Of a stretch of 64,000 nucleotides of DNA, positions 12,537-44,441 are shown one piece after another. The stretch lies in the NCBI GenBank assembly GCA_013373175.1, contig JABXII010000006.1:62001-126000 (forward strand), read 5' to 3'. Source of the stretch: Campylobacteraceae bacterium (GTDB taxonomy: Bacteria; Campylobacterota; Campylobacteria; Campylobacterales; Arcobacteraceae). Position 1 is the stretch's first letter, and each line of letters opens with the position of its first letter. The position numbers and the translations under genes were made by a program. The notes beneath the pieces were generated by a model. It saw only the letters and a program-made list of their open reading frames with translations, had not been told where the DNA came from and did no database searches.

Positions 12537-12550
12537 ACCTGTCCTTTTTA

Positions 12551-12571: not shown

Positions 12572-12611
12572 ATACTATTGAATTAACTCTTAGTTCTACC
12601 TTAATATTAAG

Positions 12612-12631: not shown

Positions 12632-12641
12632 TTAGACATAA

Positions 12642-12676: not shown

Positions 12677-12694
12677 ACTCAGATTACTTTTTAA

Positions 12695-12952: not shown

Positions 12953-12967
12953 TTTTATTCCTTATTC

Positions 12968-25217: not shown

Positions 25218-25886
25218 TTATCTTCTCAATACTTTACAATCAATTTCATGATCTCTTAATTTATCACTTTTATAATCAATATCTAAAATATTTTCATATT
25301 TAAAACATCTCTCAAATTTTGCATCATTGTTATAATATATTCTATACAAAGTTGTTGGTATTACTATATCATTTCCTATTTTGTTATTAAGGTTATCATA
25401 CTTAGCTATTGATATAGAATTTATATAGCCTAACTTTTGAGCTAGTGTTCTTCCATATCTTTCTACTTTAGTCCAAGTTCTTTGATTAACCTTTGCACTT
25501 TGAGGTATTATATTTGCCATTGTATAGGCTTTATTTAATGCTTTTTTATTATAATCAAAATCTGCATCTGCAACTATAAAATGACCTCTGTTCCAATCTT
25601 TGCCATATCCTGTATAATCTTTATATTTAGTCCTATATTTCATAGGGATAGTTTTTTCATTGTAAAATCTAGGTCTTTTTTTAATATCATCTTTAGTATT
25701 AACTCTATCTCCATAAAGAGTTACCCAGCCAGATAGAGCACCTTTATATTTATAGCTATAACAGATTTTATATAGTTGTTTATCAACTATTTGGTCACAT
25801 TGTTTTGCATCAACATAATCTTCTAAAGATGCTGCATAAGAAATACTTGTTAAAAGCAGTAAGATGAATAATAATTGTTTTTTCAT
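25218..25886 (-). CDS. Secreted DNA/RNA non-specific endonuclease (NucA/EndA type)
   Basis: The start is placed at MKKQLLFILLLLTSISYAA, which has AAAGGC upstream; an in-frame ATG five codons earlier is less likely. The signal peptide is clear. The beta-beta-alpha-metal core is DWNRGHFIVAD (His102 is the general base; the usual Asp of DRGH is Asn). It continues with TMANIIPQSAKVNQRTW (Asn134, metal) and ERYGR (Glu142). Secreted nucleases of this family on Campylobacter elements (dns type) reduce natural transformation. It lies 22 bases after the DUF6602-like gene and inside the CBASS-containing operon, but the signal peptide sends it outside the cytoplasm. Confidence 0.88.
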   Translation of the reverse strand: MKKQLLFILLLLTSISYAASLEDYVDAKQCDQIVDKQLYKICYSYKYKGALSGWVTLYGDRVNTKDDIKKRPRFYNEKTIPMKYRTKYKDYTGYGKDWNRGHFIVADADFDYNKKALNKAYTMANIIPQSAKVNQRTWTKVERYGRTLAQKLGYINSISIAKYDNLNNKIGNDIVIPTTLYRIYYNNDAKFERCFKYENILDIDYKSDKLRDHEIDCKVLRR

Positions 25887-25908
25887 AATTAAGCCTTTCA
25901 TTATTCAA

Positions 25909-26730
25909 TTATAACTCTTGATCTATTGGAAAACCAATTGAAGAAGAATATGCATTTAAATCAATAGCAGAAACTGTTCCTATTGCTTGTTGAAGGTATC
26001 TTGTTAATTGAAGAAAAAAAGTAACTAAAGAATTTTCAGTAGAACTAAAAATTATCTTGTTTGCAGTTCTTGTATTATAGTAATTGAGGTATCTTTCTTC
26101 AAACTGTTTTTTATCTTTTAAATCAGTATTTTCTTCTCCATTATAATCAATATAAAAACTTCCATAATCTGCTATACAACCAATATCTAAAGCACCTAAA
26201 CCAGATTGAGCTTTTAAATGTTTTTCCAATGTAGTATTATTCTCATGAGTAAAACTATTTGATGTAGCTAAAATACCTCCTAGTATTTTTGTAAAAGGTC
26301 TTGGAGGCATTTTTACACCAGAATTAATCATATTAGTTGATGTTCTTTTTAGTTGCCTAACACTTTTGATTTTATCTGCTGCATATTTAATATAGTCTTT
26401 ATTTATCTCTGGTTTAACTTCAAAAATAGCAAATACTCCCTCTGCAGGAATATAATGAAACCCATTTTGAGAAAAAATAAATGGCGTATACCAATTATCA
26501 TAAATTACTATATCTATTTGATCACTTGTATTTCCCTCATGATCAATAACTATCGCTTTGTCTACACTATACCTATTTGGAAGATATTTTTGTAGCCATT
26601 CAATCCATGCATTTTCAAGAGCATCACCTTTTGAGCCTGGGTGCTCTATAAATTCTCTATTCGTATTTAACTGTGCAGTCATTTGTTTCTGCAAACCTTC
26701 AAATAATGATTCTAAACTAACTTTATTCAT
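25909..26730 (-). CDS. DUF6602-like PD-(D/E)XK nuclease-fold protein, possible CBASS effector
   Basis: The 273-residue protein begins with a helical segment, then GDALENAWIEWLQKYLP. The restriction-endonuclease-like core follows: SDQIDIVIYD (metal-binding Asp), then FAIFEVKPE (E-x-K) about 35 residues later. These fit the PD-(D/E)XK pattern of the DUF6602 family. Its start overlaps the Cap3 stop by 8 bases, a strong sign that it belongs to the CBASS unit. No cyclic-nucleotide receptor domain (SAVED, STING, NucC-like) was recognised, so if it is the effector its ligand-sensing part would be new. It may instead be an accessory nuclease. Confidence 0.7.
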   Translation of the reverse strand: MNKVSLESLFEGLQKQMTAQLNTNREFIEHPGSKGDALENAWIEWLQKYLPNRYSVDKAIVIDHEGNTSDQIDIVIYDNWYTPFIFSQNGFHYIPAEGVFAIFEVKPEINKDYIKYAADKIKSVRQLKRTSTNMINSGVKMPPRPFTKILGGILATSNSFTHENNTTLEKHLKAQSGLGALDIGCIADYGSFYIDYNGEENTDLKDKKQFEERYLNYYNTRTANKIIFSSTENSLVTFFLQLTRYLQQAIGTVSAIDLNAYSSSIGFPIDQEL

Positions 26731-27187
26731 ATCTATGTAATCCTTTATTGTTATAAAAATAAATTGAAAACTCTTCCACCTTATTTTTCTTTATTCCTAA
26801 AATTAAAAGTATTGGATTTTTTATATTAACAGTGTCACTTTCTGCTATTGAAATCATAGCATTTAAGTCTGTACTACTATACATTGAATTTCCATTTGGA
26901 TGAGAATGCCATTCTCCAATATAATATTGTTCTTTTTCTTCATATAGTTTTTTTAATGTTTCTGATAGATTACTTACACTTCTTTTATAAAAGAAAAGCG
27001 ATTTTTTTTGTATTTTGGGAGTTATAAAATCTCTTATATAGAGTGTTCTAAAATCTGATGAATAGTTACCTATTAATATACCTCCTGATTCATTAGGAAA
27101 GTTCTTAATTGCTATATTAGTAAGTTTATTTAATAATTCATCTTCTATAGATAAAAAAAGCTTATTATTTTTATTTATAAAATCCAT
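26723..27187 (-). CDS. cap3: CBASS deconjugase Cap3 (JAB/MPN metalloprotease)
   Basis: The 154-residue JAMM protease has Glu33 in NESGGILIGNY and the zinc motif GEWHSHPNGNSMYSSTDLNAM (His94, His96, Ser104, Asp107). In type II CBASS, Cap3 removes Cap2-attached CD-NTase from target proteins and so limits signalling. It starts inside the Cap2 stop (TAATG) and overlaps the DUF6602-like gene by 8 bases. Short single-domain form as usual for Cap3. Confidence 0.92.
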   Translation of the reverse strand: MDFINKNNKLFLSIEDELLNKLTNIAIKNFPNESGGILIGNYSSDFRTLYIRDFITPKIQKKSLFFYKRSVSNLSETLKKLYEEKEQYYIGEWHSHPNGNSMYSSTDLNAMISIAESDTVNIKNPILLILGIKKNKVEEFSIYFYNNKGLHRYE

Positions 27188-28830
27188 TAATACTCTTTTA
27201 TTTTTAGATTTGCTGAAGTTGAATCTGATTTAATTACAAAATTTCTTTTTTCTATTTGCTCATTAAAAATTAAGTTTATTTGTTTTAATGCTATTTGAAT
27301 TAAGGCATTAATATCATTATATGAAGCTTTAAATGTTGGACTCCAACAGCCAGTTGGCTCATATAAATTTTTTGTATCATTATTTAATATATTAGAGAAT
27401 TGTTTGATTACAAAGTCATAGATATTAGGATAAAAAGCACAAACTAACTCTTTAGCATGGTTTGTAATGGATAAGTTTATAATTTCACAGTCTAGTTTTA
27501 ACGAGTTAAATATATACATTAAATCATTATCAGTACTACAATCAAATACAATATCATAATCATTTATATTTTGAATCAAACTTTCTTTTGCATCATTATC
27601 ATTATAAAAAGATTTCATTACCCATTCAAAATATTCATCTTTTATAACGTTTACATTAACAAAAGGTGAAATTGCATTTAAAATACTCTCTAATTCTAAT
27701 GTTTTATCAGTAAGACCATGTTGAAAAAAGTATTCTGATCTACATACATTTTCAATTTCTTTAACATCAAAATCAGCAATATCAATATTTTTACAACCTC
27801 CCCTTGTTAATGTTTTTGCAACATTACTACCTATTGCCCCTATACCTATTATTAATATTTTACTATTTGTAATTTTATTAGAAAATGCTCCTCTTCCAAA
27901 AAAATAGTTATATGAGATATCTCTAGTTATGGCCCAAGTTATTTCTTCATTTTTCAATTCATAATTCAATTTTTTTGATACTGTAATAGTTAAACTCGTT
28001 CTCTTTACAGGTATTTTAATAAGATTTATAATAGCAACTTGCCAATGAATCTGATTTTCAACTGTTTTATAACCAATAAATAAAGGAATATTTAAATTCT
28101 TTTTTTTTAAATCATATAGAAATCTTAAAAATTCTTGTGAAAATAAACCTTGAAAATCCTTCCAATTCTTTAGAATAAATCTGTCATATTTTACAGGTTG
28201 TTCTTTTATAAAGTAGAATAAACCCTTTGCAGTATCTTCAGAATCTATATAATGTTTGTTAAATTGACAAAAAGGTTCTATATTATTTATTTTAAAACTT
28301 TTAACTAAAAAATTTTCATTAACTTCTTTTTTATAAATTGCTTCATTAATTTTAATTAAAGAGACATCACCAAAGTCACCTTTTTGGAAAGAGTACTCTA
28401 CCTTTGTAAATAGAAAAGTGATATACCTTCTATCCAACAAGTATTCAGGGACAATAATATGTTCATAATTGAAATCATGATCTTTATTTATATAATATTT
28501 TAGAATCCAAGCCTTTAAAGAATTAAAGTCAATAATTAACTTTTTTTCTATATTTGTATTATGAGATGTATGAATACATATATTTCCACCTTCCATTACA
28601 TGATTACAATTTAATAAATCTTCATTAATAAACTTAATTGATTCATTATCTCTATCTTTAAATGGGTACTGTGCAGTTATTATAAATTCAAAATCTAACC
28701 CTTTGGGTAATTCATCAAATTTAATTTGGACTTTTCCTTTTAAAAATAGTTCATACTCTTCTAAATAATAAAGTTCAGATACAAAATCTATTGAAGATAT
28801 TGTTTTTCCAATTAATTCTTTATTGATCAT
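27187..28830 (-). CDS. cap2: CBASS conjugation enzyme Cap2 (E2-E1 fusion)
   Basis: The 547-residue protein has an N-terminal E2-like domain with the catalytic cysteine in VMEGGNICIHTS (Cys85). The central region (about 180-320) is followed by a ThiF/E1 adenylation domain: ILIIGIGAIGSNVAKTL nucleotide loop (327-341) and acidic DFDVKEIENVCRSEYF. The putative E1 cysteine is GCWSPTF (Cys495). In known type II CBASS, Cap2 attaches the C-terminal glycine of the CD-NTase to cellular proteins and primes second-messenger synthesis. It lies 9 bases after the CD-NTase gene. All key residues are present. Confidence 0.93.
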   Translation of the reverse strand: MINKELIGKTISSIDFVSELYYLEEYELFLKGKVQIKFDELPKGLDFEFIITAQYPFKDRDNESIKFINEDLLNCNHVMEGGNICIHTSHNTNIEKKLIIDFNSLKAWILKYYINKDHDFNYEHIIVPEYLLDRRYITFLFTKVEYSFQKGDFGDVSLIKINEAIYKKEVNENFLVKSFKINNIEPFCQFNKHYIDSEDTAKGLFYFIKEQPVKYDRFILKNWKDFQGLFSQEFLRFLYDLKKKNLNIPLFIGYKTVENQIHWQVAIINLIKIPVKRTSLTITVSKKLNYELKNEEITWAITRDISYNYFFGRGAFSNKITNSKILIIGIGAIGSNVAKTLTRGGCKNIDIADFDVKEIENVCRSEYFFQHGLTDKTLELESILNAISPFVNVNVIKDEYFEWVMKSFYNDNDAKESLIQNINDYDIVFDCSTDNDLMYIFNSLKLDCEIINLSITNHAKELVCAFYPNIYDFVIKQFSNILNNDTKNLYEPTGCWSPTFKASYNDINALIQIALKQINLIFNEQIEKRNFVIKSDSTSANLKIKEY

Positions 28831-28839
28831 AAACTATTT

Positions 28840-29937
28840 TCAACCAAACCTAGTATCTGGTGGAACTGAAGCTAATGAAGCACTTCCTTCTTTTACTCCA
28901 TATCTATTTTCTGAATTATCTTCTTCAAATTCTTCATTCATCGGAAAATATATTTTTATATCATTTTCATCATCTTCAATATTTTTAATAATTCTTCTCA
29001 TATCATTTGAGAATTCTTCTCTTTCATATTCAGTAAGTGTTTCAATAACATTATTATTTGAATTACCAGGATCTTTTAATGTGAAGTTTTCTTGATTTAC
29101 ATTATTTTCTATATACTCCATTACACTTTTTAATTGTTCCCATAAATTGCCATTAATATATGATTTATCAAAAGCTTTTATAGTTATTAATTCAATTAAA
29201 AAAGACTTATACTTTTCTGAATTTCTATATTTCCATATTTTTAATAATCTAATAATCTTTCTTTCATTCTGTTTAGCTTTAATATGTTGAATTTGAGCAT
29301 CAATATTTGTTTGAATATAAGTGTTTTTAGCAAGTAGACCAAATTGTGAGTTAACATATAAATTTAACTTTTTGTCTTCTATATATTTATCTTCATTTAG
29401 TTCTCTTCCTGGAACTATATCCAAATTAATAACATCTCCATCTTCATCTGAATAAAATTCAATACCTATTGAAACTTTTTGTTTTCTAACTGTTGCAACA
29501 TCATAATACTTTTCATAAAGAAGTTCATATACATCATCAAATAGTTCTTCAAGTGTATTAAAAGAGCTTCTTTTGAATGGCACTACAACATCTAAATCAA
29601 ACTTACAATTAATTGCAGTAGATTTTGCATAAGAACCTGAATTTAGAGGATTATATATTTTCCCTTTATAGTTACTTTCAATTAACTCTTTTACTTCTTT
29701 TCTTTTATCTTGATATTTAGATAACAACTCATCAATATGTGCCATTCTATGTGAGTCTAACACCCTTTGTAAATAGTCTTCTTTCGATTCTAACAATTCA
29801 TCTCCTTTATTCCATATCTTATCTATTACATACAAACCAATTAGAACATATCCAAAAAGTCTCAAGCTTTTATACTTGTCATTTTGAAAAAAATCTTCTA
29901 TTTTTTCTTTTATTGATTCTATTTCTTTTAACTTCAT
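28840..29937 (-). CDS. CBASS cyclic oligonucleotide synthase (CD-NTase)
   Basis: The 365-residue nucleotidyltransferase has GSYAKSTAI (101-109) and FDLDVVVPF (Asp114, Asp116). The third acidic residue lies in VINLDIVPG (Asp173). These are the core motifs of CD-NTases. The end of the chain is a low-complexity tail closing with PPDTRFG, so the last residue is glycine, as needed for Cap2 conjugation. An N-terminal hydrophobic stretch (about 25-42) is unusual and may be a helix of the fold or a membrane contact. The product and clade cannot be fixed from sequence. It lies 54 bases after the SIR2-like gene. Confidence 0.92.
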   Translation of the reverse strand: MKLKEIESIKEKIEDFFQNDKYKSLRLFGYVLIGLYVIDKIWNKGDELLESKEDYLQRVLDSHRMAHIDELLSKYQDKRKEVKELIESNYKGKIYNPLNSGSYAKSTAINCKFDLDVVVPFKRSSFNTLEELFDDVYELLYEKYYDVATVRKQKVSIGIEFYSDEDGDVINLDIVPGRELNEDKYIEDKKLNLYVNSQFGLLAKNTYIQTNIDAQIQHIKAKQNERKIIRLLKIWKYRNSEKYKSFLIELITIKAFDKSYINGNLWEQLKSVMEYIENNVNQENFTLKDPGNSNNNVIETLTEYEREEFSNDMRRIIKNIEDDENDIKIYFPMNEEFEEDNSENRYGVKEGSASLASVPPDTRFG

Positions 29938-29991: not shown

Positions 29992-31149
29992 TCATACATT
30001 GTTTTTAATAAGTCTCTTTCTAGATAAATCTCGAAAAGTTTGATTAAATTTTATATCCATCTTTTTATTTTTTTTGTTTAAAAAATTTAAAAAACCTTTG
30101 TTTTGTATTTCTACTTGATCTGAAATATGTTTAAAATCATTTGGAATTTCTTTAATATATGGATTAACAATGATTATCTTTCTCTCAGTAGAAAATGCTA
30201 GCCAATCATAAACTACACTGTTTATGTGTTTATCTTGAAAGCTGTACCCAATACAATACAACTCATTAACATAATTTATATGTCCTTTAAAAATTTTAAA
30301 AAACCAATCATCCATATTATGAGATACTTTTGATGAGTATTTATGTTTTCCCGACATAATTGTCATTCTTAAAAACTGTAAAACATTATTTTCATCATAA
30401 TATGTAATTTCATTTGTACATTTAACACCTTGTTTTATAGTAGGATCATTAGAAATAAGTTGATTTATACCTTTTATTAGGGTACTATCATTCCCAATAT
30501 TGTGTGCTAATTTTAAATAACTTTTTCCATCTAAGTAAGTAAATATATCTAAAGAACCATGTAGTTTAACAAGATTAATTCCTGCTTCATTATAAATAAA
30601 TTTAAATCTATTCTTTTCCATATCCTCTCTAGATAACTCTTCAAACTTAATTCCAGAAATTTCTTTATATGTATTAAAACCACACTTTAGTGGTATTTGA
30701 TAATGTTTTGCAATCATTTCAATTATTAGATCATGGTTTAAACTAAAAATCCAAAGTGGTTTTTCTGAGCAAAAGTTTTTAATTTCTTCTAGCAGATATA
30801 ATCTTTCATTGATAAATTGTTCATTATTAGTGTGTCTTTCTAATAGAAGGATAAAAACTGCTTCTAAATACTTTCCCAATACTGCATACCATTCTTGATA
30901 AAGTTGATTATTTCCTCTAGTACGATTTATCTCCACTTCTATTCTTCCAATAATATCTTCATAGTTCATAGAATTATCATTTAACAAGGGATATAAAACT
31001 TCTTCAATCTTTCTAGAGACTTTATAATAAGGTGCATTCCAGTTTCTTAAAATTGACCTTTTAAATTCAATAGTTAATTCATCAACTAGAGGTAATCCTA
31101 ATTCATAAGAAGCTCCTGCTCCAAGTAAAAATCCAGTAGTTCTAGTCAT
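29992..31149 (-). CDS. SIR2-like NADase candidate, first gene of the CBASS-containing operon
   Basis: The 385-residue protein starts with TTGFLLGAGASYELGLP (NAD-binding GAGAS, 10-14). IFSLNHDLIIEM (Asn138, Asp140) and LVKLHGSLDIF (catalytic-type His197) follow, then LYCIGYSFQDKHIN. This is the signature order of defence SIR2 proteins (SIR2_2 type), which hydrolyse NAD+ when triggered. The C-terminal 100 residues are unassigned and could hold the activation surface. It is the first gene of the operon with AGAGGA at its start. A TATAAT box lies 30 bases upstream. It may be the CBASS effector, although a recognised cyclic-nucleotide receptor domain is absent. Confidence 0.85.
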   Translation of the reverse strand: MTRTTGFLLGAGASYELGLPLVDELTIEFKRSILRNWNAPYYKVSRKIEEVLYPLLNDNSMNYEDIIGRIEVEINRTRGNNQLYQEWYAVLGKYLEAVFILLLERHTNNEQFINERLYLLEEIKNFCSEKPLWIFSLNHDLIIEMIAKHYQIPLKCGFNTYKEISGIKFEELSREDMEKNRFKFIYNEAGINLVKLHGSLDIFTYLDGKSYLKLAHNIGNDSTLIKGINQLISNDPTIKQGVKCTNEITYYDENNVLQFLRMTIMSGKHKYSSKVSHNMDDWFFKIFKGHINYVNELYCIGYSFQDKHINSVVYDWLAFSTERKIIIVNPYIKEIPNDFKHISDQVEIQNKGFLNFLNKKNKKMDIKFNQTFRDLSRKRLIKNNV

Positions 31150-33106: not shown

Positions 33107-33835
33107 TCATCTTGTCTTCCAAATATTAATATATTTACTAGGTACTCTTACAAAATTATTATTTTGAAATAAATTAAACTTTTTTAAAACCCATTCTATT
33201 ATTATATATTTTCTTTTAGTAGATATTTTTTTTGGTTCCTCACCTTTTTCATAGAAATACTCGATTTCATACTTTTCACATACGATTCTAATAGTTTTTT
33301 CTTTTCTTGATACAAATACCCCTTGATCGTTTTTTAATTTTTTAAAAAATGACTTAATATTTGGGTCTAAATCATATCTATCTCGAATAAGAACTTGTTT
33401 TAATTTTGTTTTATTATTAGCACTAATCCAACAACATGCACCAACTAACCTATGATTTCCATTAGAACAAGTTAAAAGTCCATCATAGTCTATAAATCTC
33501 AATGTATTTGTAGCATTATCTGCTGGAAAATTTTGTAACTTAATATCACTTTCAAAATAATCAAATACTTGATTAGTCCATCCCTCTCCAGTTATCCATT
33601 CATTAACTAGTTCTCTCCAAGTTCTTACATCCTCAATCCATTTATCACTTCTGCTCAATGCAACTATATTATAAATAGAAACATCATCATAATAGTCTTC
33701 ATTTTCAGTATATATAGTAAATTTATCTAATATAAAATTTATATCAGAACTATTAACTACCTGTTCCTCAAGAAGTTCATTATTACTATTTAATACAGCT
33801 TCTCTAAGTTTTTCAATCGGTTTTTTTTCAATCAT
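33107..33835 (-). CDS. ParB-fold-like protein, orphan cargo gene
   Basis: The 242-residue protein contains LLTCSNGNHRLVGACCW (residues 120-136), matching the ParB/Srx-type Gly-Asn-His-Arg helix start. A preceding strand and helix run from SDKWIEDVRTWREL to TNQVFDYF. No helix-turn-helix partner region is seen; the basic C-terminus (TKRKYIIIEWVLKKFN) could bind nucleic acid. It is transcribed alone on the minus strand between two noncoding stretches. Fold call is tentative, function unknown. It is the second ParB-like gene in the element and does not closely resemble the first. Confidence 0.55.
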   Translation of the reverse strand: MIEKKPIEKLREAVLNSNNELLEEQVVNSSDINFILDKFTIYTENEDYYDDVSIYNIVALSRSDKWIEDVRTWRELVNEWITGEGWTNQVFDYFESDIKLQNFPADNATNTLRFIDYDGLLTCSNGNHRLVGACCWISANNKTKLKQVLIRDRYDLDPNIKSFFKKLKNDQGVFVSRKEKTIRIVCEKYEIEYFYEKGEEPKKISTKRKYIIIEWVLKKFNLFQNNNFVRVPSKYINIWKTR

Positions 33836-34278
33836 TTATATCCCTTATATTAAAATTTATTGATTAATTTTAATTACCTATCACTTAACCCTTCATCAAG
33901 ATATTTGATGATAGGATAAATAAAAACTCTAGAATTTGTCCTTTACCAATTTTTATTTCAGCGGTTACATTTATGTTATCTTCTAGATATCTCTTTTATT
34001 CTACTAAAAAGCTTATTAGCATATAATCTCAAATGAAGTTAAAAAATAAATTACCAAAAAATTAGCTTCAGCTCACCGCCTATCAGTAAAAAATCAAATT
34101 ATATTATCAATTATATACTATCGACATACTTTATTTGTATTCAAATTTTAGATTAAGATTTTATTTTATATCTATTTTTCATAAGGTACAGGTTGTTAAA
34201 CAGTTTATAAATATTTTTATAACTTATCTTTATAACAATTTGTACATCATCTTTTTTGTTTTATTTCTTCTTGACAAA
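33836..34278. other. Intergenic region without a clear gene
   Basis: The stretch is AT-rich with stop codons in all frames. It holds a short dyad CATCAAGATATTTGATG near 33,894-33,910 and the second copy of the 40-bp repeat. The plus-strand frame from 34,135 is phenylalanine- and isoleucine-rich and covers the antisense of the gene remnant, so it is not taken as a gene. Confidence 0.6.
34187..34226 (+). repeat. 40-bp imperfect direct repeat, copy 2
   Basis: Partner of the repeat at 33,012-33,051 (34 of 40 identical). It lies about 50 bases beyond the 3' end of the truncated second trypsin-NACHT gene. Confidence 0.6.
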
Positions 34279-34389
34279 TCAAACTATAATGACTTCTTCT
34301 TTTTTAAAGAGCATAAAAATATCTTTTACTTTATCTTCAATTTTAACTGTACATTTGCATTTGAGATGTTCTATCAAGGAATTATTCAT
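34279..34389 (-). pseudogene. 5' remnant of a second trypsin-NACHT gene
   Basis: On the minus strand a 36-codon frame begins MNNSLIEHLKCKCTVKIED. The large trypsin-NACHT protein begins MNNPLIEHLKYKCTVRIEA. The DNA is matched over about 54 bases (34,334-34,389 against 38,924-38,979), then similarity ends and a stop follows. Its ATG overlaps the last bases of the Trypco1 gene, as in a coupled pair. It therefore looks like the beginning of a second paralogue that stood directly after Trypco1 and has been lost, or the scar of a partial duplication. Confidence 0.75.
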
Positions 34390-34693
34390 TTTCCCATTCT
34401 AATGTAACTTCAAAATTTGCAGTACCAGTACCTTTTACTAATAAGGCAGTTAATTCTCCAGATTCTATTCCAAGTGATAATCCCATTTTTAATGATATTT
34501 TTTTTGCTGTTGTTTCCTTTAATGGTTCAATTGTTGAAGCAGCTATTTTTATAATGGTTTTATTGAAATCTTCCATTTTCATTATCATATTTTCATCTGC
34601 AATATCAATCTCACCACCAAAATCTGTAGCTTCCATTTTAATAATAGTGCCATCATCTAATTCTATATTAACAGGCTTATTTTTTTTCTTCAT
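34382..34693 (-). CDS. Trypsin-co-occurring domain protein (Trypco1, CU044_2847 family)
   Basis: The 103-residue beta-rich protein has IELDDGTIIKMEATDF at the start and MEDFNKTIIKIAASTIEPLK in the middle. It ends LSLGIESGELTALLVKGTG, then ANFEVTLEW. This is the profile of Trypco1 proteins, which Kaur and colleagues found next to trypsin-type proteases in NACHT/STAND conflict systems. It lies 53 bases after the trypsin-NACHT-HEAT gene, and its 3' end overlaps a remnant of a second such gene. It probably is a substrate, inhibitor or adaptor of the protease; which of these is not known. Confidence 0.82.
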   Translation of the reverse strand: MKKKNKPVNIELDDGTIIKMEATDFGGEIDIADENMIMKMEDFNKTIIKIAASTIEPLKETTAKKISLKMGLSLGIESGELTALLVKGTGTANFEVTLEWENE

Positions 34694-34746: not shown

Positions 34747-37700
34747 TTAGATATTAAATTTTTTTTCATTAAAAAAATTTTCAATATCATCAAAAAATTG
34801 CTTTGTAGCTTTTTCTTTTGAAGAGATTAATTTTCCATCTATAATTATGTTTAGTTTTTCATCTTTAATAAAAAGTGGGTGCTGATCATGAGAAATCTTT
34901 TCTAACAAAATATTAGGGATTTTATTTAAATAGCCATTAATATCTATCTTTACAATGTCTGCAATAGTATCTCTTACACATTCATGTATATTTTCATCTT
35001 GAATTATAGAAAAAAGAGTTTCTAAATGTTCATCATTTAGAATATTTTGTTTAGCTAAATCTTTTGCAATATCTCTTCTTGTAAGGTGAAATATGCTCTC
35101 ATCTTTAAGTATAATAATAAGACTTTTTAATACATTATTATCTTGAATATTTTGTTTAGCTAAAGCTTTTACAATATCACTTCTTGTATAGCTATCAATA
35201 TTCTCATTTTTAATTATGGAAATAAGACTTTCTAATAAATCATTATTTTGAATGTTTTGATGAGATAAAGCGTCTGTAATCTCTTTACTTGTAAAGTTAT
35301 GAATACGTTCATTTTTAATTATGGCAATAAAACTTTTAAATACATCCTTATTATGAAGATTATATTTAGTTAAAGCTCTTTCAATATCTACTCTTTCATA
35401 TCTAGATATACTTTCATCTTTAGTTATATTAACAAGACTTCTTAATAAATTTTTATCTTGAATATTTTGCCTTGCTAAAGCTTTGGAAATATGTACTCTT
35501 TCAAATTGATCTACATTTTCATCTTTAACTATATCAATAAAACTTTTTAATAAGTCCTTATCTTGAATATTTTGTTTAGCTAAAGCTTTGGAAATATATA
35601 CTCTTACAAATTTTGATATACTTTCACTTTTAATTATGGCAATAAAACTTTTTAATAAATCCTTATTTTGAATACTTTGTTTAGCTAAAGCTTCTGCAAT
35701 ATCTCTTCTTGTATATATATTTATACTTTCATCTTTAATCATATTAATAAGATTTTTTAACAAATCCTTATTTTTAGCTAAAGTTTTTGCAATATCTCCT
35801 CTTGTATCTTCATTTATACTTTCATCTTTAATCATATCAAGAAGATTCCTTAACAAATCCTTATTTTGAATACTTTGTTTAGCTAAAGTTTTTGCAATAT
35901 CTCCTCTTGAATATTCATATATACTTTTATTTTTAATTATGGCAATAAAACTTTTAAATACTTTCTTATCTTGAATATTGTGTCTAGCTAAAGATTTTGC
36001 AATATCTCTTCTTGTAAATTCATATATTCTTTCATCTTTAAGTATATCAATAAGACTTTTTAATACTTTCTTATCTTGAATATTGTGTCTAGCTAAAGAT
36101 TTTGCAATATCACCTCTTGTAAATTCATATATTCTTTCATCTTTAAGTATATCAATAAGACTTTTGACTAAATTATTATTTTGAATTTTCTGTCTAGATA
36201 AAACTTTTGCAATATCTCCTCGTATATATTGATTTATACTTTCATCCTTAATTGTATCAATAAGATTTTTTAATACATTCTTATCTTGTATATTGTGTCT
36301 AGTTAAAATTTGTATAGTATATTTTCTTGCATATCCATCTATATTTTTATCCTTAAGCATAAAAATAAGACTTTTTAATACATTATTATCTTGTATATTT
36401 TGTTTTTCAAAAGTGTTTTCAATGTATATTCTATCATATCCACTTAGAGTTTGATCTTTAAGCATATCAATAAGATTCTTTAATAAATCATCATCTTGTA
36501 TATTTTGATCACCTAAAGCTCTTACAATAGCTACTCTTGCATCTATATTTATATTTTCATTGTTAAGCATATCAATAAGATTCTTTAATAAATCATCATT
36601 TATATTTTGATCACATAAAGCTTCTACAATAGCTACTCTTACAACTATATTTATACTTTCATCGCGGAGCATATCAATAAGATTTTTTAATAAATCATTA
36701 TTTTGAATGCTTTGCTTAGCTAAAACTTTTGTAATAGCTTTTCTTACAGCTATTTCTATACTTTTATCTTTAAGTGTGGAGGTAAGGCTTTTTAATATAT
36801 CCTTATCTTGAATATTGTGTCTAACTAAAGCTTCTAGAATAGTTACTCTAGTATCTCCCTTTATCTTTTCATTTTTAATAATTGATATAAGTTCTTCTAA
36901 AAGTTCATCATTTTTAACATAATTAACATTCGAAAATAAATCACGTAAAGGAATATCTTTTCTAATAAATAAATAAATTATATTAATAATATCTTGATTA
37001 GCTTTAGAAATATATGTAGATTGTATTTGATCTTCTTTAATCTCTTTTAAACAATTAAAGATCAATAATGGCTGATATACTTTTGTTAAATCTTTAGGCT
37101 CATCGCCCAAAGAATCTAAAAAAAACTCTTTTTGCTCAATTACACCACCTAAAAAGTAGAAAAAAAGTTGCATATGCGGGAAGTACTTATATGTGTAAAT
37201 AATTTCTTTAAGTTTTGATTCCTCAAGTTTTGAAACATATAAAGCTGCAAAATATTCTTGAAAACTAAGATGCAAAAATTCATAGTTATTTAATACTTCA
37301 CTAACAGATTCTAAATTACTTTTTAAGAATCCTGATTTTAGTACAAAATCACTAAATAAAGTTATCTTATCACCAACAGTTTTTTTTACCATTTTTTTAT
37401 TTATAATAATTGTTTGTTGAATTAAACCTTCATATGCCAATTCTCCTAATAGATTAAAAATATCAGTTTTCTTATTTTGAAGATACTTTGTATCATTTAT
37501 CTTAGTGTATTCGTAAAATATATAATCTATAATATTTGAATATAGATCAGTCATAGTACTATTATTAGTAAAAATATCCTTATACTTTGGGTTATCCCAT
37601 AAAGAAGATATCATTTCAAGCATAAGTGGTATATATGATATTTGTTTAATGTCTAAATTAGTATCTAAATAATTATTCAAACTTTCAGACAAGTCTTTTT

Positions 37701-38979
37701 TATGGTTATAAAATTTATTTACATAATTTACAACATTTTTATTTGTAAATCCAATTGTTTCAAAGTATTGATTTATCTCAAAATTACTTTTATGATAACC
37801 GTAAGGTCTAGAAGTTAAAATATAATTAGGTATATTTTCAATTTCACCTTTAAAATAATTTGCTAATTCAGAATTTAATTCATCGTAACCATCAAATAAA
37901 AATAGAGTTTTAGATAAGTGTGGTTTTAGTTCATCATGTATATTTTTACTTGAGTACAGGTCTATGTATGTTCGTCTGATTAAATTAAAAACTCCATCTT
38001 TTTTTAAGTTTCTAAGTTTTACATAAATCACATACTTAAATTCTTGATATAACTTACCTTTAGCCCAGTTATATACGATATATTGACAAAGAGTTGTTTT
38101 ACCAACACCTGCTTTTCCATAAATCATTGCTCTTGTTTTGTTATCTACGCTAGATTTATTAACTATATCTTCAATATTTATTATTTTTTTTGGTTTTTGT
38201 ATCTCTTCATAATTATTAATTATTGAATCTCTATGAAAATATTTTTCATCTTCTTTTTTATCTTCTTTTTTATCTTCTAATATAATTGCTAGATTAATAT
38301 AAATATCTTCAATGTTTCTTTTATTTTTATCGATTAAAAAAGAGATTGTATTAAATTTATTTAGATATTTAGATTGTAACTTATATTCTAAGGATTCAGA
38401 TAATTCTTGCCATTTACTAATTTGATCTTTTACATCAAGATTTAAATTATTAAAGATAATTTTTGATGTGGAAATGCCACGACCACCTAGGTGAAAGTCT
38501 TTATTGCGGGACCTACTCACAATACCACACACTTTTGAATTTTGAGTATTGAGTATAGCAGAACCACTAAATCCTCCAATAAAATGACCATCTTTAAATT
38601 TTAATAGATCATCATTGCACTCTTCATAGAGGTAAGTTAAAGTATCACCATTTTCTTTAAAGTTTTGAGGAAAACCATAACTGAAGCAAGTATCATTTAT
38701 TTTTATTGTATCATCTAGAGCAACTGAATCCTTATTATTAAATTCATATTCTATTAGAGCTAAATCTATATCAGAGTTTTGATGTTTTTGAATATTATCT
38801 TTATTTAAAATAAACTCTTTATTATTCCAATAAATTTTTATATTATCAGATTTTTTTACTACATGATAACAAGTTAAAATTTTATCTTTAGCAATAAAAA
38901 AACCTGTTCCAATTTTGCCACTAGCTTCAATTCTAACTGTACATTTGTATTTGAGATGTTCGATTAATGGATTATTCAT
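34747..38979 (-). CDS. Trypsin-like protease-NACHT-HEAT repeat protein (STAND antiphage system)
   Basis: The 1410-residue protein begins with a trypsin-like domain (1-175). The triad is His39 (ILTCYHVV), Asp72 (SDIDLALIEY) and Ser138 (GGFSGSAIL). A helical linker (180-275) leads to a NACHT ATPase: Walker A GKAGVGKTT (288-296), Walker B LFLFDGYDEL (359-368), and ILTSRPYG sensor. Winged-helix and helical parts follow, with typical EFLHLSFQEYFAALYV. The C-terminal part is about 19 HEAT-like repeats of 35 residues. Such proteins oligomerise on sensing a phage component and release an effector; here this would be proteolysis. It is expected to be cytoplasmic, with Trypco1 next to it. No signal peptide. 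Confidence 0.9.
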   Translation of the reverse strand: MNNPLIEHLKYKCTVRIEASGKIGTGFFIAKDKILTCYHVVKKSDNIKIYWNNKEFILNKDNIQKHQNSDIDLALIEYEFNNKDSVALDDTIKINDTCFSYGFPQNFKENGDTLTYLYEECNDDLLKFKDGHFIGGFSGSAILNTQNSKVCGIVSRSRNKDFHLGGRGISTSKIIFNNLNLDVKDQISKWQELSESLEYKLQSKYLNKFNTISFLIDKNKRNIEDIYINLAIILEDKKEDKKEDEKYFHRDSIINNYEEIQKPKKIINIEDIVNKSSVDNKTRAMIYGKAGVGKTTLCQYIVYNWAKGKLYQEFKYVIYVKLRNLKKDGVFNLIRRTYIDLYSSKNIHDELKPHLSKTLFLFDGYDELNSELANYFKGEIENIPNYILTSRPYGYHKSNFEINQYFETIGFTNKNVVNYVNKFYNHKKDLSESLNNYLDTNLDIKQISYIPLMLEMISSLWDNPKYKDIFTNNSTMTDLYSNIIDYIFYEYTKINDTKYLQNKKTDIFNLLGELAYEGLIQQTIIINKKMVKKTVGDKITLFSDFVLKSGFLKSNLESVSEVLNNYEFLHLSFQEYFAALYVSKLEESKLKEIIYTYKYFPHMQLFFYFLGGVIEQKEFFLDSLGDEPKDLTKVYQPLLIFNCLKEIKEDQIQSTYISKANQDIINIIYLFIRKDIPLRDLFSNVNYVKNDELLEELISIIKNEKIKGDTRVTILEALVRHNIQDKDILKSLTSTLKDKSIEIAVRKAITKVLAKQSIQNNDLLKNLIDMLRDESINIVVRVAIVEALCDQNINDDLLKNLIDMLNNENINIDARVAIVRALGDQNIQDDDLLKNLIDMLKDQTLSGYDRIYIENTFEKQNIQDNNVLKSLIFMLKDKNIDGYARKYTIQILTRHNIQDKNVLKNLIDTIKDESINQYIRGDIAKVLSRQKIQNNNLVKSLIDILKDERIYEFTRGDIAKSLARHNIQDKKVLKSLIDILKDERIYEFTRRDIAKSLARHNIQDKKVFKSFIAIIKNKSIYEYSRGDIAKTLAKQSIQNKDLLRNLLDMIKDESINEDTRGDIAKTLAKNKDLLKNLINMIKDESINIYTRRDIAEALAKQSIQNKDLLKSFIAIIKSESISKFVRVYISKALAKQNIQDKDLLKSFIDIVKDENVDQFERVHISKALARQNIQDKNLLRSLVNITKDESISRYERVDIERALTKYNLHNKDVFKSFIAIIKNERIHNFTSKEITDALSHQNIQNNDLLESLISIIKNENIDSYTRSDIVKALAKQNIQDNNVLKSLIIILKDESIFHLTRRDIAKDLAKQNILNDEHLETLFSIIQDENIHECVRDTIADIVKIDINGYLNKIPNILLEKISHDQHPLFIKDEKLNIIIDGKLISSKEKATKQFFDDIENFFNEKKFNI
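34910..36905 (-). repeat. Array of about nineteen 105-bp HEAT-repeat units inside the NACHT gene
   Basis: Each unit encodes about 35 residues of the form LKSLIDILKDERIYEFTRGD + IAKSLARHNIQDKKV. Two adjacent units near 35,970-36,180 are almost identical at DNA level and encode 33 of 35 identical residues, which points to recent tandem duplication. One unit near 35,770 has lost four codons (AKNKDL in place of AKQSIQNKDL). Such arrays expand and contract by slippage or unequal recombination. Confidence 0.85.
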
Positions 38980-39707
38980 TGTAACTCTTTAAATTATTTA
39001 TTGTTGTGGCTATTAATATTATAAATTTTATTTAATTAGATATAAAAATGAAATAAAATTTGTAATTTTTCGTATACTTAACTTGATGTGATCTATCAAT
39101 AGGAAATAGAACACACAATTCAGGATAATCTTTTTCTAAACCTCTTATATTTGGAACACGAAGTACTCAAGTGAGTTTTCCGTGTTCCACAAAGTGTTCA
39201 AAAAGTAGAATTTAGAGATTCTCACAAATCCTTAGGATTTTTTGAACAACAAGATTGACTTGTTTAAATTATAAATCTAAACAATATCATCATAAATATA
39301 ATCTGTTTTAATGAACACCTTTTAAGTAAAATAATTATAAAAAACTTGTATTACAGTATTTATATAATCATAAAAACTCTATAATCTAATCTTTAATACT
39401 TTAAAGGAATATTTTGAAAAAAGTTATAATATCCACAATATTTTATCGTCCCTACTAATTGCAAACTAACCAAACAAACAATTCAAATATATCTATGTAA
39501 ATCTTATTACCAAACCATCTAGTGGATTAAAAGCTCAACTTCATGGCATGGTCTTAGATGATATTTATAAATCATATTCAAAAGATATTCTTATTAAAAA
39601 TTGTATCTATATGACTTAATACAACTCCACTTAACAGATTAATAACAGTATCAATTAGTACCAAATACATTACATTTTTCAATCGACTTTTCATATAACT
39701 CCCTTTT
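38980..39707. other. 728-bp intergenic stretch with hairpins and a possible decayed gene
   Basis: No intact gene is seen. GGAACACG and CGTGTTCC (39,153-39,188) form an 8-bp stem with an inner ACTC/GAGT pair. AAATCC-TTA-GGATTT with a following T run (39,226-39,243) looks like a weak terminator on the plus strand. A plus-strand frame at about 39,465-39,620 reads KPSSGLKAQLHGMVLDDIYK and further without an initiator; it could be a gene remnant. The stretch separates the NACHT gene from the recombinase module. Confidence 0.6.
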
Positions 39708-42560
39708 TTACTTTTTCTCAGAAATTTCTTTAATAAAAGACGTTAATAGACCCTTCTTCTTTGCATCAATATAATATTCCATCAAATAATCTATTGCATC
39801 TACATTATCATTAATCAACTCTACTACCTTTTCTTCTTCATTCATACTTTGAGCAAATTGAATAGCTTTAATAGTTAATAATTTGAGCCCATAATCATCT
39901 TGTTCAACACCCATAAGTTTTGCCTGATAGCAATTTTCTAAGTATGCTAAACTACTGTTTACTTCTCTTGCTTCTATTACTTTATTCTGTACATATAACA
40001 TAAGAGAATTATCTTCTATACTTTTTGTGATATCACTTTCAATTTTATCAAGTATCTCATGCCAGCCCATAATCTCTTCAACTAGTAATTCCAATTTAGT
40101 TGCTTTTGTATCTGAATATCTAGTGCCCACTTTCTTCTCTTGCTCATGTTCTTTTGATAATCTAACAAATGATGTCATGGCTAAATTTGCCATATGAATA
40201 ATTCCATCTAAAAATAACCTTCCAGTAATAAAGTAACTGCACAAGGAACACTTACGTTCTCTTCCTTCGGGACATTGAACTCCAGGACAAATACCACTAA
40301 TCATTGGAAACCATGAAGTAGGATGTTTAATAGATGCTATATTAATCCCTGAATCAATATCAAGAGAATCTTGTAAAGTTGAAGCCTTTCTTTTCATAGA
40401 GAACAATCCATTTTCTCTAAAAGCCTTTTTTATATCTTTTGGATTTGAAGTATCATAATGGCAAGGTATTTCATTAAAAATAAAACTCTCTACATTATTA
40501 ACTAGTTCTTCTGGCTGATCAAACCTTAACTTTTGTACAGCACTTTGTAAAATCTCTTTTTTCTCCTCTTGAGTGAATTTAGTATATACATTAACAATCA
40601 TATTGTAATCTACATGGCCAGTTAGCATTAGTAATACATTTAAGTTTACCCCTGCATAAAGGTATCTAGTGATTCCTGTAACTCTTATAGCATGTATGTT
40701 ATAAGCAACTTGTATTTTTTTTATTAGATATGTATCATTTGCTTGGTTTAATTCCTCTATGGTTCTAAAAAACTCTTTACTATCTTTTTTCCATGCTACA
40801 TTTGATTTATATTTTATATATCCAGACTGATAAGCATTATTTATTTTTATTTGATAAGTACATAGAAGCTTGATTAGATATACTTTATGTTGAAAAGGGG
40901 TGATTGGTTGAAGTGAATTTGGTATTAAAAATAATGGTTCAATATCTTCCCAAGGTGTATTCTCCTCATTATTGTATTTATATTGTGGTAGGGTTGGATA
41001 ATACTCTTTATTCCACTGCAAATAATCTTTTAAGATATTAAGTTCTTCCCAAACATTAGGTATCTCTTGTAACATATCTCTATTTACATTTTTATCTGTA
41101 TTTATAATAAATCTTTCTAGGTTTCCATCATGGTTAAACACTAAAGATTTATTCCTACATAAATGTCTTAATTGTCCACCTCTTATTGGTATATTTAAAT
41201 GCATTAACATCATAAGTGGTTGGACAGGATAAATATCTTTAAATTCCCACCAATCTAAATTTGCTTTTGAAGGCTCCCATACTGTACTGGGTTTAGGTGG
41301 GTTTGTTGTAAGTATTTTTTTTAATTCATTAAGCATCTCTTGAGGCATTGCATTTCTTGAAGTAATAGTTCGTCTCTTCTTTTTTCTTTTAGGTATATTT
41401 CTTTTTGCAAATGGTGTTATTAAACCACAAAACTGCAAAAACTTGTTCACGACACTAAGTGCCTCATATTGACTTCCCTCAGCAATATTTTGTAATTGTA
41501 AATATTTAAAAAAAGTATTTTTATTGTTTACATCAAACATACTATTCACAGTATTCTCATCAAAGGTATCAAGATCCTCTTGCTCTTTTATAATATATTT
41601 AAACATATGATTGATTGCTACCATGTACTTTTTTCTTGTAGCTGTTTTTATACCATCTATATAAAGCCGTTGTAGATATAAATTTGCATCTGTTTTTAAA
41701 GAAAATAGTTTGTGTGTTTTATCAATACTCAGCCACTCAAAGGGATCTTTTTTCATATCATAAACTATTGTTTGTGGATTTGTTCTAATAGAATTAGTAA
41801 AAATATTTGGAGTATCGATATTTGATACCCCCGATTCTAATAGATATAACCGAATTTTATTTAGCACTGAAATCTTTCGAGGAAAACTAACTATATTATC
41901 TTTATTCTTGAAACAATATGTTTGAAATTGATTTATATCCTCATTCATTATGTCCTCTTTTGTACTCCAAAGACAACAGGATATTATTCCATCAAGTGTT
42001 TTTAATTCTGAACGTGCATATTTTTTATCTTTTGATTTAAGTATTAACTCATGTAATTCTAAATATAGTTTATTTGTTTTAAACAATTTACTAAAATCAT
42101 ATTTAAAGTGAGATATTGCTTTTGTAGTAATTGGAAATAGCAGTTTTTTATGATATCTTTGATAAACAAAAAATCTTGTTAAGATACTTATTGGAGTAAA
42201 AAACTTTCCATTGATTCGAATACTAGATGAATCATTATACATTGATATCATCTTTTCATAATCTGTTGTAACGAGAATAGAATAAATTCCATCTGTATAC
42301 TTAAAGTCTAATATATCCAAACCATTTCCAAAACCAAATAGATTTTTTAAGGTTCCAGAAAAGCTAACAAAGTTATTACTCCCCTCTTTATAGTTTCGTA
42401 TTTCTGGTTTCTTATTTAATGAAGTATGTTTAAGTTCATGCGATATAAAATGATCACAAAAAGCAAACCAGTCTTTCTTGATACTATTTTTTGCAGTATT
42501 TAATATCAAGATATCATCTGTTAAATTTACGCAAGGTAATACATCTACAAATTTATACAT
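39708..42560 (-). CDS. Large tyrosine recombinase, TnpB-like (Tn554 type)
   Basis: The 950-residue tyrosine recombinase has the catalytic set Arg460 (IPIRGGQLRHL), His623/Arg626 (IHAIRVTG), His649 (LLMLTGHVDY) and Tyr659 (VNVYTKF). A zinc-binding-like cluster CPGVQCPEGRERKCSLC (Cys758, 763, 771, 774) follows. A long N-terminal region (1-300) precedes the DNA-binding core. The architecture and the order tnpA, small gene, tnpB are those of Tn554-type and related strand-biased elements. The start overlaps the small gene by one base, so all three are one operon. Confidence 0.88.
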   Translation of the reverse strand: MYKFVDVLPCVNLTDDILILNTAKNSIKKDWFAFCDHFISHELKHTSLNKKPEIRNYKEGSNNFVSFSGTLKNLFGFGNGLDILDFKYTDGIYSILVTTDYEKMISMYNDSSSIRINGKFFTPISILTRFFVYQRYHKKLLFPITTKAISHFKYDFSKLFKTNKLYLELHELILKSKDKKYARSELKTLDGIISCCLWSTKEDIMNEDINQFQTYCFKNKDNIVSFPRKISVLNKIRLYLLESGVSNIDTPNIFTNSIRTNPQTIVYDMKKDPFEWLSIDKTHKLFSLKTDANLYLQRLYIDGIKTATRKKYMVAINHMFKYIIKEQEDLDTFDENTVNSMFDVNNKNTFFKYLQLQNIAEGSQYEALSVVNKFLQFCGLITPFAKRNIPKRKKKRRTITSRNAMPQEMLNELKKILTTNPPKPSTVWEPSKANLDWWEFKDIYPVQPLMMLMHLNIPIRGGQLRHLCRNKSLVFNHDGNLERFIINTDKNVNRDMLQEIPNVWEELNILKDYLQWNKEYYPTLPQYKYNNEENTPWEDIEPLFLIPNSLQPITPFQHKVYLIKLLCTYQIKINNAYQSGYIKYKSNVAWKKDSKEFFRTIEELNQANDTYLIKKIQVAYNIHAIRVTGITRYLYAGVNLNVLLMLTGHVDYNMIVNVYTKFTQEEKKEILQSAVQKLRFDQPEELVNNVESFIFNEIPCHYDTSNPKDIKKAFRENGLFSMKRKASTLQDSLDIDSGINIASIKHPTSWFPMISGICPGVQCPEGRERKCSLCSYFITGRLFLDGIIHMANLAMTSFVRLSKEHEQEKKVGTRYSDTKATKLELLVEEIMGWHEILDKIESDITKSIEDNSLMLYVQNKVIEAREVNSSLAYLENCYQAKLMGVEQDDYGLKLLTIKAIQFAQSMNEEEKVVELINDNVDAIDYLMEYYIDAKKKGLLTSFIKEISEKK

Positions 42561-43141
42561 TATGAATCCTCCATAATTAATTTATATCCATTTCTATGTA
42601 ACAATATATCTCCAAGTTGAACCAAAACTAAAGCTTCTTTTTTCATATCATATTCGGCTAATCCTAATTCATAAAGCCTTTGAATAAGACCCTTTGATGC
42701 CTGTTGTATCAACTGATTTTTTTCTATTTCTTCGTAACTTGACATATCAAAAGAGTTTAAATTACCACCATATTTTTTTAACACTTCTCTTAGTAGTTTG
42801 TTCTCTTTTTTGATCTTTTCCATTTCAATTTTTATAGAAAATAACTCAATTCTGATATCTCCATCAGTTTTAAAACCCTTAGGTCCTTCATTAGAGCCCA
42901 TTTCTTGTTGAGCTTTTTGAATCATTTGTTTATATATAATGTTTTTACTAATTGCTGATGCAGAAATACCTTTTTCTCCTAAAACGGAGTCTGCAATTAA
43001 ATATGAAGTCTTTGAAACATTGTTTGCTGATAATTCACCATTTAATGCAACTATTTTATCTATAGTTTTTTGTACTAACATCACATTTATTTCCACACGC
43101 TTATCCCTAAATTCTTTTAAATTATCTTTTTTAACTTTCAT
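42560..43141 (-). CDS. TnpC-like accessory protein (DUF6262 type)
   Basis: The 193-residue basic helical protein has an N-terminal predicted DNA-binding part (NNVSKTSYLIADSVLGEKG, then SASAISKNIIY). A coiled coil (IELFSIKIEMEKIKKENKLL) follows. No recombinase catalytic residues are present. Tn554-type elements carry such a small TnpC, which stimulates or orients recombination. It lies 1 base after the TnpA-like gene and overlaps the TnpB-like gene by one base. Confidence 0.75.
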   Translation of the reverse strand: MKVKKDNLKEFRDKRVEINVMLVQKTIDKIVALNGELSANNVSKTSYLIADSVLGEKGISASAISKNIIYKQMIQKAQQEMGSNEGPKGFKTDGDIRIELFSIKIEMEKIKKENKLLREVLKKYGGNLNSFDMSSYEEIEKNQLIQQASKGLIQRLYELGLAEYDMKKEALVLVQLGDILLHRNGYKLIMEDS

Positions 43142-43142
43142 G

Positions 43143-44441
43143 CTAAATCCTCTTTTGACTATTTTCTATTGCTTTTTTAAGTAACTCTTTTTTCATCTCA
43201 AAACTCATATTAAAGTAAATCATAGTTGATTCTAATGAGCTATGTCCCATTGCATTTTTTGTCCAACTTATTAAAGCATCATTCCCCGTATGTCCATAAA
43301 GTTTAGCAGCCATAAAACCAAACATATGGCGTAACGAATGTAAACTATAATGTTCCAAACTATCTTCACTAAGTTCAAGTCTTTTTAACTTTTGTAATAA
43401 ACTTTTAAATGACTTATTAACTTCTCTTGTTCGTAATCTATTTCCACTTTTTGTGACAAATAGAAATGGATGTCTTGGAATTCTAGATGCTTCAGGCAAA
43501 TAATACTTTGTACTGACATATTCAACAAGTGTTGAAAAAAATATAGTTTTATATTTTGGATTTATCCAATGAAGAGGTTCATACTCATAAGGAATTGGAT
43601 ATTTGAATTGTAGATCAAGAACATTATGTGGTTTATCAAAATGTACATCAATATTATATTCTTCTTTTAACCATTTAACTCGTTTGTTTCCATATATATC
43701 TTTATCATCACTTTTAGGATCAATAAGCCATACTTCTTGTTTTTCATAATCCACATCATAAATTGTTAGGTTTAATGCCTGTCCTATTCTTGCACTACAA
43801 GCGCCACATAATAAATAAATTAGTCTTTCTCTTGGATTTGATAACTCTAATAGATTATCAAATAAATCTAAGGGGAAACTCTTTAGGCTTTGGCTACTCC
43901 TGATTCTTTTTTTATATGGTTTAACAAATTCTCGTTTGAAAGTAGTTAGTTCATAGTTAATTTGTGCTTTCTTCATATTAACAGAAGACAAAAAAGAATA
44001 TTGAGCTTTTCTATTTTCATATGCCTTATTAATTGAATTACTGTCATGCATTAAATGTAAATCTTCAACAAAGAAAAAATAAGATTTAATTCCTGCCATT
44101 TCCTTATCAATTGTTTCTCTCGTCATTGATTTAGATAAATATATTTCAATTGAAACCATTTGATTATTAATTAGTATTTCTTCATTAATTCTAAAACCCG
44201 TTTTTAGATCTTCTCTATATCGAGCTTGATAAAAAGGGAAAGCTTCATTATCTTTAACATTATTGTATAAACTCCAAATCCAGAACCTTTCCATACTTTT
44301 CATATAAGAAGAGATTGTACCCAACGATAAATTTCGTAGATTTCTCATCCAATTTGACCACTCTTTTGATTTATACAATTCAACTAATTCATTGTTATAT
44401 AAAAAAGCAAGTGTATAATCATTACCAATATTTATTTTCAT
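43143..44441 (-). CDS. Tyrosine recombinase, TnpA-like (Tn554 type)
   Basis: The 432-residue integrase has all catalytic residues: Arg218 (SARIGQALNL), His368/Arg371 (YSLHSLRHMF), His400 (NAMGHSS) and Tyr409 (TMIYFNM). The N-terminal SAM-like core-binding part (WMRNLRNLSLGTISSYMKSM) is present. It is the first gene of the recombination operon, 139 bases from the divergent regulator. It cleaves and joins the element ends; the target here is the dprA site. Confidence 0.92.
   Translation of the reverse strand: MKINIGNDYTLAFLYNNELVELYKSKEWSNWMRNLRNLSLGTISSYMKSMERFWIWSLYNNVKDNEAFPFYQARYREDLKTGFRINEEILINNQMVSIEIYLSKSMTRETIDKEMAGIKSYFFFVEDLHLMHDSNSINKAYENRKAQYSFLSSVNMKKAQINYELTTFKREFVKPYKKRIRSSQSLKSFPLDLFDNLLELSNPRERLIYLLCGACSARIGQALNLTIYDVDYEKQEVWLIDPKSDDKDIYGNKRVKWLKEEYNIDVHFDKPHNVLDLQFKYPIPYEYEPLHWINPKYKTIFFSTLVEYVSTKYYLPEASRIPRHPFLFVTKSGNRLRTREVNKSFKSLLQKLKRLELSEDSLEHYSLHSLRHMFGFMAAKLYGHTGNDALISWTKNAMGHSSLESTMIYFNMSFEMKKELLKKAIENSQKRI

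What the first reader, a model, noticed from the sequence alone, without database searches (positions are those of the whole stretch)
34279..34389. Fragment of a second trypsin-NACHT gene directly after Trypco1
The minus-strand start MNNSLIEHLKCKCTV shares about 54 bases with the start of the intact gene, then diverges. Its ATG overlaps the end of Trypco1. This suggests either that a Trypco1 gene was followed by a paralogue that is now lost, or that partial duplication brought a new start there. It shows turnover of this locus.
Basis: seen in the sequence. Interest (0 to 1): 0.6.

Follow-up and report, generated by a model that had tools for sequence, protein, structure and literature searches.

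The report
Stub of a lost immune protease gene
A bacterial defence island holds the first 18 codons of a second protease-type immune gene, sitting just after its usual partner gene but cut off and joined to debris of mobile DNA; it is an ordinary but clear example of gene loss in such islands.

Summary
34332-34390 (minus) matches the start of the intact trypsin-NACHT gene (38922-38980) at 88% over 59 nt, far above chance. The match starts at the ATG and stops after codon 18. The ATG overlaps the Trypco1 stop by 8 nt, exactly as in another genome where Trypco1 overlaps a full trypsin-STAND gene. In 4 of 4 outside Trypco1 loci read, the next gene downstream is trypsin-like (3 by Pfam or record annotation, 1 by motif only). 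So this is the 5' stub of a lost, Trypco1-coupled trypsin-type gene.

Codons 19-36 are a piece of a small tyrosine recombinase (KVKDIFMLFKKEEVIIV / KVKDINTIFEKEELIIV; 0 of 1000 shuffles as good). The stop codon is the first three bases of a transposon-like inverted-repeat end, of which the window has three. The 36-aa ORF is a chance chimera, not a conserved peptide. Whether the lost gene had a NACHT domain cannot be known. Ordinary turnover in a defence island; low to moderate interest.

The parts
34336..34390 (-). 5' stub of a second trypsin-type gene: codons 1-18 (34336-34389) plus one base before the ATG
   Evidence: 88% over 59 nt to 38922-38980; codon table
34282..34335 (-). 54-nt piece, in frame, matching residues 62-79 of a ~198-aa tyrosine recombinase (codons 19-36 of the ORF)
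   Evidence: 80% over 51 nt to L092; protein score 57, shuffled maximum 39 in 1000; the same site in 7 of 26 recombinase loci
34181..34281 (-). one-ended remnant of a small inverted-repeat element; its first bases TGA give the ORF its stop
   Evidence: 84% over 101 nt to L029; inverted-repeat pattern; PWM score 20.1
34382..34693 (-). Trypco1 (PF19493; NCBIfam CU044_2847 family), 103 aa, intact; overlaps the stub's ATG by 8 nt
   Evidence: Pfam E 4.8e-13; NCBIfam
34747..38979 (-). intact trypsin-NACHT protein with a long C-terminal array of ~35-aa repeats, 1410 aa; the related full-length gene
   Evidence: Pfam NACHT 3e-19, Trypsin_2 1.3e-9; 105-nt DNA repeats
39089..39280 (+). second inverted-repeat element end, pointing away from the trypsin locus on its other side
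   Evidence: PWM score 26.6; 83% over 122 nt to L057, 75% over 179 nt to L093
33012..33104 (-). third inverted-repeat element end, 2 nt after the stop of the 242-aa ORF 33107-33835
   Evidence: PWM score 20.9; 76% over 99 nt to L029; 84% over 49 nt to 34187-34235

Best explanation
The stretch is what is left of a second trypsin-type gene, translated in overlap with Trypco1. The usual unit is Trypco1 followed at once by a gene that begins with a trypsin-like protease domain; here one such gene stood after Trypco1, while a related trypsin-NACHT gene stood before it. A rearrangement joined codon 18 of the second gene to the middle of a tyrosine-recombinase gene, and a small inverted-repeat element lies directly after that, so that its first three bases end the reading frame. 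Ribosomes that finish Trypco1 could restart on the ATG and make a 36-residue chimera, but nothing suggests that it has a function. Trypco1 itself is intact and now lies behind the surviving trypsin-NACHT gene, which keeps its protease triad motifs and Walker motifs. Shown: homology, boundaries, three-part make-up, overlap, order in other genomes. Inferred: that the second gene was once full length, the order of events, and that the surviving pair still works as a defence.
For: Homology from the ATG through codon 18 only. The same 8-nt overlap of Trypco1 with a full trypsin + nSTAND gene in G390; a trypsin-like gene next downstream of Trypco1 in 4 of 4 outside loci read: G390 overlap 8 nt, G402 gap 8 nt, Allocoleopsis plasmid gap 9 nt, Crocosphaera gap about 201 nt. 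The N-terminal motif of the stub (LK.KCTV.I) is shared with the Crocosphaera protein (LKNCTVRL). Codons 19-36 are recombinase. The stop lies in an inverted-repeat end found in 11 of 104 genomes of the family, reversed-pattern control 0. The peptide is not conserved: next best of 100 genomes E 0.026. No second copy of the trypsin-NACHT body in its own genome at E <= 1e-10.
Against: Only 18 codons remain, so the former full length is inferred. No genome was found with the order trypsin-NACHT, Trypco1, trypsin gene intact. In one search only 4 candidates per genome were scored for the long repetitive query. The fourth outside trypsin-like gene (G402, 6747-7493) has no Pfam hit and is trypsin-like by motif only. 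One outside locus has no tight coupling (gap about 201 nt). The G390 protein lacks the CTV motif, so the close likeness of stub and intact gene is special to this locus.
Confidence: 0.8

Rival explanations
1. A short partial duplication: only the first ~59 nt of the intact gene were copied behind Trypco1, and no full second gene ever stood there.
For: Only 59 nt match; no other part of the intact gene is found in the flanks.
Against: The copy would have to begin within one base of the ATG and land with the same 8-nt overlap that a full Trypco1-coupled gene shows in G390. A trypsin-like gene is expected at this place (4 of 4 loci). With 12% difference the copy is not recent.
Confidence: 0.12
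2. A conserved small peptide gene coupled to Trypco1.
For: Intact 36-codon ORF, start coupled to the Trypco1 stop.
Against: No relative in 99 other genomes at E < 0.02; 0 exact matches of a 33-base piece in viral contigs; the frame is built from three unrelated pieces.
Confidence: 0.03
3. The locus is a composite transposon-like unit (like a TIME-COMP): the trypsin-NACHT/Trypco1 segment 34282-39088 was moved in by the two inverted-repeat elements at its sides, and the stub marks the ragged edge of the moved unit. (Compatible with the best explanation; it concerns how the unit came here.)
For: Inverted-repeat ends lie on both sides and point away from the segment, as expected for cargo between two small elements; TIME-COMPs move intervening DNA (PMC13367494, abstract).
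Against: The far ends of both elements were not found in the window; no target duplication was shown; no Tn3-type transposase was found or looked for.
Confidence: 0.2

Closest known systems
Trypco1 / trypsin-like peptidase pairs of bacterial conflict systems (eLife 2020, PMC7159879; passages read)
   Same: Trypco1 next to a gene with a trypsin-like N-terminus fused to a STAND-type NTPase; the paper reports frequent neighbourhood of Trypco1 or Trypco2 and trypsin-like peptidases
   Different: Here the partner downstream of Trypco1 is only a stub and the intact trypsin-NACHT gene lies upstream; the VMAP/MoxR-vWA ternary genes described in the paper were not looked for here
[quoted passage not shown] PMC4133298 search listing only)
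   Same: 224-bp inverted-repeat element in G020 (L051 7295-7518) and an 844-bp relative that carries only a serine resolvase between two such ends (L091 8290-9133)
   Different: Ends begin TGATCTGTCAAC, not GGGG as in classical Tn3 (recalled); no Tn3-type transposase seen; the window copies are one-ended remnants
Gamma-mobile-trio (GMT) elements (named by NCBIfam models; papers only as a search listing)
   Same: Island carries a trio of genes with two recombinases that weakly match GmtY and GmtZ, and defence cargo
   Different: Both scores are far below the curated cut-offs (51 of 340 bits, 49 of 600); the middle gene matches nothing

Membership tests
Trypco1 (PF19493) | Match over the curated cut-off | tested here: met
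   50 bits, cut-off 24.6; also NCBIfam NF041216 51.4 bits, cut-off 23
Trypco1-coupled trypsin-type gene (for the stub) | Position directly after Trypco1 on the same strand, with overlap or a short gap | tested here: met
   8-nt overlap, as in G390; order the same in 4 of 4 outside loci
Trypco1-coupled trypsin-type gene (for the stub) | Trypsin-like domain with His/Asp/Ser | tested here: not met
   Only codons 1-18 remain; in the intact gene the motifs with the catalytic residues start at residues 36, 70 and 136; hence called a stub, not a member
Trypsin-NACHT (lost second gene) | NACHT domain after the protease | not testable with these tools
   No sequence left beyond codon 18
TIME (for the elements at 34281, 33104, 39089) | Terminal inverted repeats at both ends, 50-500 bp | tested here: not met
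   In the window one end each; met by the relative in G020, 224 bp
TIME (for the elements at 34281, 33104, 39089) | Origin from a Tn3-family transposon | not tested
   A resolvase between such ends in L091 (PF00239) fits; transposase not sought
TIME-COMP | Two complete TIMEs around cargo | tested here: not met
   Ends on both sides, far ends not found
GMT element | GmtY and GmtZ over curated cut-offs | tested here: not met
   51.3 of 340 bits and 49.1 of 600 bits

The most novel reading that the evidence does not exclude
Trypco1 has changed partner: it lost the trypsin gene with which it was co-translated and now serves the trypsin-NACHT gene upstream of it, in an island whose modules are cut, moved and joined by a family of resolvase-linked inverted-repeat elements that recur at the edges of cargo genes across this bacterial family.
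Probability: 0.2. Interest if true: 0.45.

Novelty: new member of a known kind. Interest (0 to 1): 0.27.

Why it matters
It documents, base by base, how an immune-type gene was lost from a defence island: stub, recombinase piece, inverted-repeat end. It also gives Trypco1, a poorly understood partner protein, a natural case in which the downstream protease gene is gone while a related one upstream is intact, which makes the question of partner specificity testable. As a gene remnant it is ordinary.

Tried and rejected
Remnant of the C-terminus of the lost paralogue in codons 19-36: rejected, no likeness to the intact gene (77 of 200 shuffles as good), and a better source (tyrosine recombinase) found.

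Stand-alone conserved peptide: rejected.

A second small gene after the stub (49-aa ORF in G020): rejected; its relatives hold stops and it lies inside the inverted-repeat element.

IS3 as source of the inverted repeats: considered from memory because of the TGA start, dropped after the resolvase-only element in L091; the parent transposon was not identified.

Searching for the trypsin-NACHT protein in genome contigs (1 locus), viral contigs (none) and plasmids (4 records, none covering 80% of the query) gave only distant relatives. The G096 and G070 matches have NACHT without an N-terminal trypsin in the ORFs read and no Trypco1 that I saw. No structure prediction was run; the question did not need one.

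Full report
Observation. The minus-strand ORF 34389-34279 codes for MNNSLIEHLKCKCTVKIEDKVKDIFMLFKKEEVIIV. Its first 59 nt, from one base before the ATG, match the start of the 1410-aa trypsin-NACHT gene (38979-34747) at 88%. The match is not chance: E 2.5e-15 in the window, score 81 against a shuffled maximum of 34 in 200. Of the 18 shared codons, 15 give the same residue; differences are at codons 4, 5, 6, 11 and 16. There is no likeness upstream of the two ATGs (22 of 60 against a background of 18.3 +/- 3.7).

Setting. The order on the minus strand is trypsin-NACHT (Pfam NACHT and Trypsin_2), Trypco1 (PF19493, 50 bits), stub. The stub's ATG overlaps the Trypco1 stop by 8 nt. Trypco1 is rare here: 3 of 398 genomes of the order and 2 of 397 in an overlapping draw from the phylum. 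I read four Trypco1 loci outside the window. G390: Trypco1 10142-10447 and a trypsin + nSTAND gene 10440-13127, again with an 8-nt overlap. G402: gap of 8 nt to a 248-aa ORF that is trypsin-like by motif only (no Pfam hit). Allocoleopsis plasmid NC_019739: gap of 9 nt to an annotated serine protease. Crocosphaera L021: gap of about 201 nt to a trypsin/STAND ORF. So 4 of 4 have a trypsin-like gene next downstream. By annotation or by eye, none has one directly upstream. The stub stands where the partner of Trypco1 is expected.

What follows codon 18. Codons 19-36 do not resemble the intact gene. They match residues 62-79 of a small tyrosine recombinase (Phage_integrase, PF00589): KVKDIFMLFKKEEVIIV against KVKDINTIFEKEELIIV, score 57, shuffled maximum 39 in 1000; DNA 80% over 51 nt. 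Among 26 loci with relatives of this recombinase, 7 show the matching site (L102-L107, L124); the other 19 do not. The hit was already as a weak match (G041, E 0.5), which I passed over at first.

At 34281 the sequence becomes TGATTTGTCAAGAAGAAATAAAACA. This is an end of a small inverted-repeat element: 34181-34281 is 84% identical to part of a 224-bp element in G020 that has inverted ends. A pattern for the end occurs in 11 of 104 genomes of the family, with no match of the reversed control in the genomes listed. A weight matrix from 20 distinct ends (loci of the window's own genome left out) finds three ends in the window: 39089 (+), 33104 (-), 34281 (-), with scores 26.6, 20.9 and 20.1. The best score in 20 simulated windows was 13.7, and the next window site scored 9.9. 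In G138 an 844-bp element holds only a serine resolvase between two such ends, which suggests a Tn3-like origin; no transposase was sought. The two ends at 34281 and 39089 lie on either side of the trypsin locus and point away from it. Their far ends were not found, so a composite, mobile unit is possible but not shown.

Reading. The 36-aa ORF is a three-part chimera: 18 codons of a trypsin-type gene, 18 codons of a recombinase, and a stop supplied by an inverted-repeat end. The simplest history is that a full trypsin-type gene was co-translated with Trypco1 and was lost by rearrangement. The rival, a short duplication that began at the ATG and landed in the same overlap, cannot be excluded but needs coincidences. 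Whether the lost gene had a NACHT domain is open. The surviving gene keeps TCYHVV, DIDLALIEY, GFSGSA, GKAGVGKTT and LFDGYDE motifs (their meaning as catalytic and Walker motifs is recalled), so the surviving pair may still work.

Known background. Trypco1 and Trypco2 were named in eLife 2020 (PMC7159879, passages) as frequent neighbours of trypsin-like peptidases in conflict systems; PNAS 2024 (PMC10907252, passages) calls them adapter domains. A full-text search for 'Trypco1' found only these two papers in the held library. Composite units bounded by TIMEs are described in PMC13367494 (abstract and outline). No paper describing this locus was looked for beyond.

Island. The locus lies in an insertion that splits dprA: halves at 22457-22861 and about 45617-45983. 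In the other 15 of 15 genomes of the genus the frame is 255-287 aa long. The insertion carries a recombinase trio (39708-44441) weakly like GMT recombinases and a CBASS operon with E1-E2, JAB and NucC.

Verdict. Observation confirmed; interpretation partly supported; an ordinary gene remnant, with a well-resolved anatomy.

Noticed in passing
22457-22861 and about 45617-45983: dprA is split by the ~22.8-kb island; the other 15 of 15 genomes of the genus have an unbroken frame of 255-287 aa. Possible loss of natural transformation.
   Followed up: partly
39708-44441: Three-gene recombinase module (432, 193 and 950 aa) with weak matches to GmtY and GmtZ, below cut-offs; relatives of the 950-aa protein in 5 of 104 genomes of the family, own genome included.
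   Followed up: partly
25909-29937: CBASS operon: oligonucleotide cyclase, E1-E2, JAB, NucC, followed by a 227-aa ORF 25218-25901 with no PADLOC hit.
   Followed up: partly
29992-31149: SIR2-like protein with PADLOC matches to SIR2 and Aga_SIR2 models.
   Followed up: no
33867-34003: Non-coding stretch about 80% identical over 123-134 nt to the 3' end of a 118-aa ORF in G003 (L030) and to a place in G013, and 74% over 121 nt to one in G033; I read it from memory as an HlyD-type C-terminus, Pfam found nothing for the ORF. Another gene remnant.
   Followed up: partly
33104 and 34281 (minus), 39089 (plus); L029, L051, L091-L095: A family of inverted-repeat elements (TGATCTGTCAACAGAAAATAGGACA) found in several genomes of this bacterial family, in several cases near defence-type or restriction genes (by eye); one form carries only a serine resolvase.
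   Followed up: partly
33107-33835: 242-aa ORF without Pfam, NCBIfam or PADLOC match whose stop lies 2 nt before an inverted-repeat end, so its 3' end may be truncated as well.
   Followed up: no
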